Origin: Bacteroidetes bacterium GWF2_43_63
Lineage (GTDB): Bacteria > Bacteroidota > Bacteroidia > Bacteroidales > DTU049
NCBI GenBank assembly: GCA_001769275.1
Contig: MEOQ01000005.1
Span: 62,001 to 126,000 of the forward strand
Direction: 5' to 3'
DNA length: 64,000 bases
Position numbers and translations under genes: made by a program. The notes below the pieces were generated by a model. That model saw nothing but the letters and a program-made list of their open reading frames with translations. It was not told the DNA's origin and did no database searches. Below are positions 24,359 through 57,066 of this stretch, in pieces; positions within the stretch are counted from its first letter, which is position 1, and each line of letters opens with the position of its first letter.

Positions 24359-24576
24359 GAGTCTGTCTAAAAATGATGTTGGAAGCAAAAACAACATTCC
24401 ACCGTCCGAAAGCGACGTAGGCGCTGAAGGACATGGAACCGTTGTTTTTGTTGTTGTTACGACGGTTCCATGTTCCGGCCTGTTTAGAAAACCCTCGAAG
24501 AGTTCCGAACTCTTCGAGGGTTAAGTGTGGCCGGAACGGTGGAATGTCGTAACAGTGAACTGTTTTTGACAGTCTC
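24359..24576 (+). mobile_element. MITE-like structured element, copy A
   Basis: A 218-base element with terminal inverted repeats GAGTCTGTCTAAAAA (left) and the complement of GAGACTGTCAAAAACAG (right). A second copy lies in inverse orientation at 56847-57066, about 85-90 percent alike by eye over its whole length. The interior is fully palindromic: AACATTCCACCGT pairs with ACGGTGGAATGT, ACATGGAACCGT with ACGGTTCCATGT, GTTCCGGCC with GGCCGGAAC, and a perfect central hairpin has 15-base arms AACCCTCGAAGAGTT (24490-24504) and AACTCTTCGAGGGTT (24508-24522). No ORF or transposase. It is most like a non-autonomous transposable element, moved by a transposase elsewhere; a clear target-site duplication was not found. 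Confidence 0.82.
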
Positions 24577-51459: not shown

Positions 51460-51555
51460 GAGGCTGTCTCAAAATTCAAACTTCGGTGGCTTCCTTCAGA
51501 ATCAAAAATCAAAAATCGGATATCTCAATTCATCCGAAGTTCTGTTTCTCAGAGA
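51460..51555. other. possible short element with TIR-like ends
   Basis: The left end GAGGCTGTCTCAAAA resembles the ends of the MITE-like elements at 24359 and 56847, and the right end has TCAGAGACGAATT with GTCTC in complement. Both ends also share AACTTCGG in inverse orientation (51479-51486 and near 51533-51540). It lies upstream of serS. The match is partial and may be chance or a different, decayed element. Confidence 0.3.
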
Positions 51556-56846: not shown

Positions 56847-57066
56847 GAGACGGTCTAAAAACAGCGTATTGTTACGACATTCCACCGTTCCGGCCACAAT
56901 TAACCCTCGAAGAGCTCCGAACTCTTCGAGGATTTTCTAAACAACAGGCCGGAACATGGAACCGTCGTAACAACGGCAAAAACAACGGTTCCATGTCCTT
57001 GCGCTCCTGAATCGCTTTAGGACGGTGGAATGTTGTTTTGCCTACGAATCATTTTTAGACAGACTC
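56847..57066 (-). mobile_element. MITE-like structured element, copy B
   Basis: A 220-base element, inverse-complement counterpart of copy A (24359-24576), with nearly all paired stems kept. Ends are GAGACGGTCTAAAAACAG on the left and the complement of GAGTCTGTCTAAAAA on the right. The central hairpin has one changed base in each half relative to copy A; read in copy A orientation both changes leave G:U pairs. It starts 6 bases after the meaB stop (reading on the minus strand), so it forms the 3' untranslated region of meaB. Confidence 0.82.

What the first reader, a model, noticed from the sequence alone, without database searches (positions are those of the whole stretch)
24359..24576. Pair of highly structured MITE-like elements
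Copies at 24359-24576 and 56847-57066 are inverse complements of about 220 bases with TIRs of the form GAGnCTGTCTAAAAA and an interior that folds as one closed set of stems around a perfect 15-base hairpin. They lie 32 kb apart with no transposase in the window. They could be a non-autonomous transposon family, or a structured RNA family spread by it.
Basis: partly seen in the sequence, partly recalled or inferred. Interest (0 to 1): 0.65.

Follow-up and report, generated by a model that had tools for sequence, protein, structure and literature searches.

The report
REP hairpins nested inside MITE ends
The two elements belong to a family of dozens of short, non-coding mobile DNAs in this uncultured Bacteroidales genome: ends like those of an ordinary insertion sequence enclose a pair of hairpins of the kind copied by a different, single-strand transposase, and the loop of one hairpin holds a third repeat with its own transposase gene elsewhere in the genome.

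Summary
The 218-bp and 220-bp elements exist as described (fold z = -10.1 and -9.4) and are two of at least 47 TIR-bounded copies in this 4-Mb genome; a sister genome in the genus has more. TIRs (GAGnCTGTCTnAAAA) with 3-bp duplications at young copies support a MITE. The interior is not a structured RNA gene. It is a REPIN-like pair of inverted hairpins (REP-A, CATTCCAYCG…CATGGAAYCG). REP-A also occurs without TIRs, in another genus of the family and in a second REPIN family of this genome, and REP-A or related hairpins directly flank REP-associated tyrosine transposase (RAYT) genes in the sister genome and in this one. In both window copies the loop of hairpin 2 holds a second palindrome, REP-B (CCCTCGAAGRGTT…AACYCTTCGAGGG; 53 sites genome-wide), and two REP-B copies flank another RAYT gene of this genome. 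The element is thus a three-level nest of parts from three transposition systems. Length classes of about 171, 198 and 219 bp and deletion products show modular loss and gain. No parental IS was found here; relatives carry multi-copy ends with the same TIR. Movement and transposase specificity are inferred. Kind: new variant of known kinds (MITE plus atypical REPIN).

The parts
24359..24576 (+). copy 1, whole TIR-bounded composite element (218 bp)
24359..24373 (+). left TIR GAGTCTGTCTAAAAA
24562..24576 (-). right TIR (GAGACTGTCAAAAAC on the minus strand)
24387..24449 (+). REP-A hairpin 1
   Evidence: covariance model R1, 76.2 bits, E 1.2e-18; this copy is in the training set
24455..24554 (-). 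REP-A hairpin 2, inverted relative to hairpin 1, so the pair is a REPIN
   Evidence: R1, 58.6 bits, E 9.4e-14; not in the training set
24490..24522 (.). REP-B palindrome in the loop of hairpin 2 (AACCCTCGAAGAGTTCCGAACTCTTCGAGGGTT)
   Evidence: contig C5:86492-86520 = window 24492-24520
56847..57066 (-). copy 2, whole TIR-bounded composite element (220 bp)
57052..57066 (-). left TIR of copy 2, GAGTCTGTCTAAAAA
56847..56861 (+). right TIR of copy 2 (GAGACGGTCTAAAAA on the plus strand)
56978..57040 (-). REP-A hairpin 1 of copy 2
   Evidence: R1, 70.8 bits
56870..56972 (+). REP-A hairpin 2 of copy 2
   Evidence: R1, 58.2 bits
56904..56932 (.). REP-B palindrome in copy 2 (two mismatches to the pattern)
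   Evidence: C5:118904-118932
51460..51474 (+). solo TIR GAGGCTGTCTCAAAA, remnant of a related element without hairpins

Best explanation
Each copy is a non-autonomous composite mobile element with three nested layers. Outer layer: IS-type terminal inverted repeats, so that a DDE transposase supplied in trans could move the whole unit with a 3-bp target duplication. Middle layer: a REPIN-like pair of inverted REP-A hairpins, descended from a RAYT (HuH/Y1, single-strand) system native to this bacterial family. Inner layer, in the long size class that includes both window copies: a REP-B palindrome in the loop of hairpin 2, whose probable RAYT lies on contig C40 of the same genome. SHOWN: the nested anatomy; hairpins existing without TIRs; REP-A and REP-B hairpins flanking RAYT genes; size classes and deletion products; co-inheritance of left and right spacers with arm type. 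INFERRED: that a DDE transposase moved the TIR unit, that the flanked RAYTs act on these hairpins, and that REPIN insertion plus later hairpin gain, loss and exchange made the size classes. The strong RNA-like fold follows from stacked inverted repeats and need not mean an RNA function.
For: Copy number and TIRs: 63 BLAST pieces from 40 scored candidates in the own genome; TIR pattern 82 sites against 11 in the reversed control. TSD: 3-bp flank matches at zero offset 10 observed, 3.0 expected, p = 0.0005 over 66 parsed elements of both genomes, none of 4 bp or more; with stricter TIRs 8 against 2.45; TAA, TTA, TGC. REP-A hairpin: 97.4% of cells paired, 8 pairs with double changes, covariation 0.41 against 0.185 shuffled and at most 0.14 when slid. 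Census with model R1: at least 145 hairpins in the own genome, 38 in G002, 34 in G005, 2 in G001, 0 in G003. In the G005 loci read, the hairpins lie without paired TIRs; a second REPIN family of the own genome also lacks TIRs. RAYT link: G002 RAYTs L101 and L105 are flanked by REP-A hairpins; own-genome RAYTs L102 and L106, not in the training set, are flanked by related hairpins at E about 1e-6; the proteins match only NCBIfam REP_Tyr_transpos at 4e-7 to 7e-17, below its cut-off, with invariant NHxH and a Y..xNP motif; the one PDB match is TnpArep 4er8 (weak). REP-B: 53 sites, 0 in the control; two flank RAYT L114 on C40; 15 free copies read. Modularity: length classes about 171, 198, 219 bp; L045 = L011 without its REPIN (40/45), L141 = L065 without its REPIN (43/46), L078 = L065 without hairpin 1 (116/123). 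Co-inheritance: left and right spacer rho 0.31, spacers and arm type 0.42-0.47, all p < 0.001, while the hairpin loops do not follow the left spacer.
Against: No autonomous parent IS was found in this genome; a draft assembly can lose multi-copy IS. Neither window copy has a 3-bp duplication at zero offset, and outside the GTCTAAAAA subfamily duplications are not detectable. No empty site was found among held loci. No own-genome RAYT is flanked by the exact REP-A sequence, only by relatives of it. RAYT hits are below the curated NCBIfam cut-off. REP-A lacks the GTAG/GTGG foot of canonical REPs.
Confidence: 0.77

Rival explanations
1. Target-site model: the TIR palindrome is only a landing pad. 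A RAYT inserted REPINs again and again into pre-existing short TIR palindromes (mini-MITEs or terminator-like stem-loops), and the composite never moves as one unit.
For: Very short TIR-only elements exist (L045 45 bp, L141 46 bp, L056 41 bp). Literature precedent: REP dimers inside palindromes in Anabaena variabilis and Halothiobacillus neapolitanus (PMC3733652). Hairpin loops do not follow the left spacer. The TIR-like 15-mer also forms a terminator-like stem in another genome (L156).
Against: The spacers on the two sides of the REPIN correlate with each other and with REPIN arm type, so ends and REPIN were copied together. TIR-only copies look like internal deletions of particular full copies. 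The 3-bp matches sit outside the TIRs. Full copies greatly outnumber TIR-only ones.
Confidence: 0.15
2. A structured RNA (regulatory RNA, attenuator or riboswitch) spread or carried by a MITE.
For: Very strong fold on both strands; covarying helices; most copies intergenic, 7 of 24 between divergent genes and 16 between co-directional genes.
Against: No Rfam match in the window. The same hairpin occurs alone, in inverted pairs, without TIRs and beside RAYT genes. Loop and length vary from 15 nt upward. The two strands fold almost equally well. No promoter-like site was found and the one terminator-like site is no more than chance. DNA hairpins acted on as single strands would give the same covariation.
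Confidence: 0.05
3. A plain MITE whose palindromic interior arose by chance or internal duplication and has nothing to do with RAYTs.
For: TIRs, size, AT-rich ends and the lack of a coding frame fit a MITE.
Against: The same hairpins occur without TIRs in another genus and flank RAYT genes; REP-B is an independent family flanking another RAYT.
Confidence: 0.03

Closest known systems
REPINs (REP doublets forming hairpins) with RAYT/TnpAREP, Bertels and Rainey 2011, PMC3116915
   Same: Two inverted hairpins with a spacer, many intergenic copies, RAYT genes flanked by the same hairpins, excision-like products.
   Different: Canonical REPINs have no IS-type TIRs around them; these hairpins lack a GTAG/GTGG foot, and their loop carries a second REP type.
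TnpAREP subclass 2.6 / RAYT group 5 of Bacteroidetes with atypical secondary structures, PMC6006769
   Same: Bacteroidota hosts, RAYT flanked by hairpins without GT[AG]G, copies elsewhere in the genome.
   Different: Subclass not formally assigned here; motifs NH[FY]H and Y[IV]xxNP only partly fit the published 2.6 signature, and some features also fit subclass 2.4.
REP dimers inside palindromes (A. variabilis GTAG-15, H. neapolitanus CGTC-1), PMC3733652
   Same: A REP dimer enclosed by a longer inverted repeat.
   Different: There the palindrome is described as the site into which dimers are inserted; here the ends look like IS ends, show 3-bp duplications and co-inherit with the REPIN; plus a nested REP-B.
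IS5-family-derived MITEs of Bacteroidetes such as BrickBuilt of Porphyromonas gingivalis, PMC4596501
   Same: MITE with GAG-starting TIRs (ISPg4 TIR GAGACTGTTGCA), short target duplications, intergenic, Bacteroidales.
   Different: BrickBuilt holds tandem 23-nt repeats, not a REPIN. A TIR match to IS5 is a resemblance only; no parent transposase was found.

Membership tests
MITE | terminal inverted repeats at both ends of many copies | tested here: met
   47 own-genome copies with hairpin core and two TIRs; pattern 82 against 11 control
MITE | target site duplication | tested here: met
   3-bp flank matches 10 against 3.0 expected, p 0.0005, for the family and mainly its young subfamily; not seen at either window copy
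MITE | parent IS with matching TIRs | tested here: inconclusive
   none in the own genome for DDE_Tnp_1, DUF772, DDE_Tnp_1_6; the same TIR at contig ends, as for multi-copy IS, in G005, G013, G016, G034, transposase not recovered
MITE | empty site in a relative | tested here: inconclusive
   no junction match among held loci; no close strain available
REPIN | two REP hairpins in inverted orientation, in high copy number | tested here: met
   opposite strands in both copies; at least 145 hairpins
REPIN | the same REP flanks a RAYT gene | tested here: met
   sister genome RAYTs L101, L105; own genome RAYTs L102, L106 with related hairpins
canonical GTAG REP | GT[AG]G tetranucleotide at the foot of the hairpin | tested here: not met
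   alignment A1 shows no such foot; so filed as atypical REP, not canonical GTAG REP
RAYT (REP-associated tyrosine transposase) | HuH motif and catalytic tyrosine; match to the curated model | tested here: inconclusive
   NHxH and Y..xNP invariant; only NCBIfam match is REP_Tyr_transpos, E 4e-7 to 7e-17 but below its 80-bit cut-off
structured RNA family | match to a described family | tested here: not met
   no Rfam match at gathering score
RAYT/REPIN | single-strand cleavage of the REP by its RAYT | not testable with these tools
   needs biochemistry

The most novel reading that the evidence does not exclude
One element is spread by two chemically unrelated transposition systems: DDE cut-and-paste through the outer TIRs and HuH/Y1 single-strand processing of the inner REPIN, with a second HuH system inserting its own REP into the loop. 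Such a dual-vehicle element would let hairpins ride as MITE cargo after their own RAYT is lost, and would explain the modular size classes.
Probability: 0.35. Interest if true: 0.68.

Novelty: new variant of a known kind. Interest (0 to 1): 0.5.

Why it matters
MITEs and REPINs are normally treated as separate kinds of miniature mobile DNA with unrelated enzymes. A high-copy family in which a REPIN, itself carrying a second REP type, sits inside IS-type ends shows that REP sequences can spread as passengers of another transposition system. That bears on how REP families persist after losing their RAYT and why some REPs seem to lack a dedicated transposase. It also gives sequence and structure for a poorly described, GTAG-less REP class of Bacteroidota, with candidate cognate transposases.

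Tried and rejected
Structured RNA: no Rfam match, hairpins beside RAYTs, no promoter-like site and only chance-level terminator-like sites. IS1182 or IS4/IS5 parent in the own genome: none. The G005 IS1182-like transposase contig (L147) did not overlap the contig-end tail of L127. Plasmid and phage records: no match to the element; the IS-end tail gave only weak chance hits. Viral contigs: no REP-A hairpin; one TIR-plus-terminator hit, not followed. Empty sites by flank joining: none among held loci. L156 looked like an IS end but is a terminator-like stem-loop with a TIR-like sequence. The Mantel result for TIRs alone is weak, since the two TIRs are inverted copies under the same constraint; the spacer-only test was used instead.

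Full report
WHAT WAS CHECKED. Both copies are at the stated places, inverse to each other, 218 and 220 bp, 87% identical. Their folds lie about ten standard deviations below dinucleotide shuffles on either strand (DNA parameters). Rfam has no match in the window.

COPY NUMBER AND ENDS. In the window's own assembly (G000, 3.98 Mb, 51 contigs; the window is C5:62001-126000) BLAST scored 40 candidates and all of them matched. The TIR pattern GAGNCTGTCTNAAAA with one mismatch occurs 82 times against 11 for the reversed control and exposes further copies of a diverged subfamily (CATTCCACCG changed to TATTCCATCG, with matching changes in all four arms). I parsed 66 TIR-bounded elements in G000 and the sister genome G002; 47 of G000 hold the hairpin core. 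Three-base flank matches occur 10 times where 3.0 are expected (p 0.0005), with none of four bases or more; with stricter TIRs 8 against 2.45. They are mostly TAA or TTA, in the GTCTAAAAA subfamily to which the window copies belong, though the two window copies themselves do not show one at zero offset.

THE INTERIOR IS A REPIN. The core is two hairpins in inverted orientation. Both share the arms [CT]ATTCCA[CT]CGT and [CT]ATGGAA[CT]CGT, with variable outer and inner stems. In 26 hairpins (A1) 97.4% of cells pair, and covariation far exceeds shuffled and slid controls. Because the two hairpins are inverted copies, arms 1 and 4 and arms 2 and 3 are also perfectly complementary, so the strand can refold; one search shows the alternative. 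In the G005 loci read, the hairpins have no paired TIRs, and G000 itself holds a second REPIN family without them. The hairpin is therefore broader than the TIR composite.

TRANSPOSASE GENES. In G002 two RAYT-like genes are flanked by these hairpins (L101/L073 and L105). In G000 two RAYT-like genes (L102, L106) are flanked by inverted pairs of related hairpins that the model finds at E about 1e-6 although they were not in its training set. The proteins hit only REP_Tyr_transpos in NCBIfam, below its curated cut-off, and share NHxH and a Y..xNP motif. A profile of five hits only TnpArep 4er8 in the PDB, weakly. Published work describes Bacteroidetes RAYTs (subclass 2.6) flanked by atypical hairpins without GTAG (PMC6006769), which fits; formal subclass assignment was not made.

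THE INNER HAIRPIN IS A SECOND REP. The 'perfect 15-base hairpin' is a palindrome found at 53 places in G000 and never in the reversed control. Fifteen copies outside REP-A elements were read. Two copies bracket a RAYT gene on C40: one ends about 40 bp before its start and one begins about 20 bp after its stop; that protein gives the best RAYT match of all (E 6.6e-17). So the loop of hairpin 2 holds a REP of a different RAYT system. Element lengths fall into classes of about 171, 198 and 219 bp according to the insert in that loop.

HOW IT PROBABLY AROSE AND MOVES. Spacers on the two sides of the REPIN correlate with each other (rho 0.31) and with arm type (0.42-0.47), so ends and REPIN were amplified together; the hairpin loops are independent of the left spacer, so they are exchanged or replaced. 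L045, L141 and L078 look like particular full copies that lost the REPIN or one hairpin. Best reading: a REPIN came to lie between IS-type ends, the composite spread in trans as a MITE, and hairpins were gained, lost and swapped inside. The rival, that RAYTs repeatedly inserted REPINs into pre-existing TIR palindromes, has a published precedent (PMC3733652) and is not excluded.

PARENT IS. No DDE_Tnp_1, DUF772 or DDE_Tnp_1_6 protein is in G000. In G005, G013, G016 and G034 the exact TIR lies a few dozen bases from contig ends, as expected of a multi-copy IS, but its transposase was not recovered. ISPg4 of the IS5 family in Porphyromonas has a similar end, GAGACTGTTGCA (PMC4596501); this is a lead, not an assignment.

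HOST AND SURROUNDINGS. Copy 1 lies between a divergent ECF sigma factor gene and a phosphoribosylformylglycinamidine synthase gene; copy 2 lies 6 bp beyond the stop of a meaB gene and upstream of a 215-aa gene with no family match. Of 28 copies examined with simple ORF calling, 24 are intergenic (16 co-directional, 7 divergent, 1 convergent), 3 overlap a called ORF and one lacked a flanking ORF on one side. I found no evidence of a regulatory role and do not claim one.

VERDICT. Observation confirmed; MITE reading supported; RNA-gene reading not supported. The family is a new variant of known kinds: a MITE-ended REPIN with a nested second REP.

Noticed in passing
window 51460-51474: Solo GAGGCTGTCTCAAAA end in an intergenic stretch, followed by a spacer resembling those of family members but without hairpins.
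   Followed up: partly
L192-L204 (several contigs of the own genome): A second REPIN family (GCAAACATAATATTCCATCGTCC...) without the TIRs; many copies share other flanks (left CTGTCATCCTGAGACATCCAGCAAAACGCG, right GTGTGTCATTAGCAG), perhaps another composite.
   Followed up: partly
L109 (own genome C17:22216-22824): A third RAYT-like gene flanked by repeats of the form CACTCAGGTCGATTTCATCGACGCAGAGAG; copy L023 of the studied family is inserted beside such a repeat.
   Followed up: no
L156 (G119:C6) and L127 (G005:C51): GAGGCTGTCTCAAAA followed by its complement and a T-run forms a terminator-like stem-loop, at L156 with no IS nearby.
   Followed up: partly
L054 (own genome C48:7940): Hybrid copy: one hairpin of the T-type (TATTCCATCG), the other of the C-type (CATTCCACCG), i.e. 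a recombinant between subfamilies.
   Followed up: no
L115 (G002:C452): Another RAYT-like gene flanked by repeats of a different kind (GGTGTCTGACA...), with no REP-A hit by the model.
   Followed up: no
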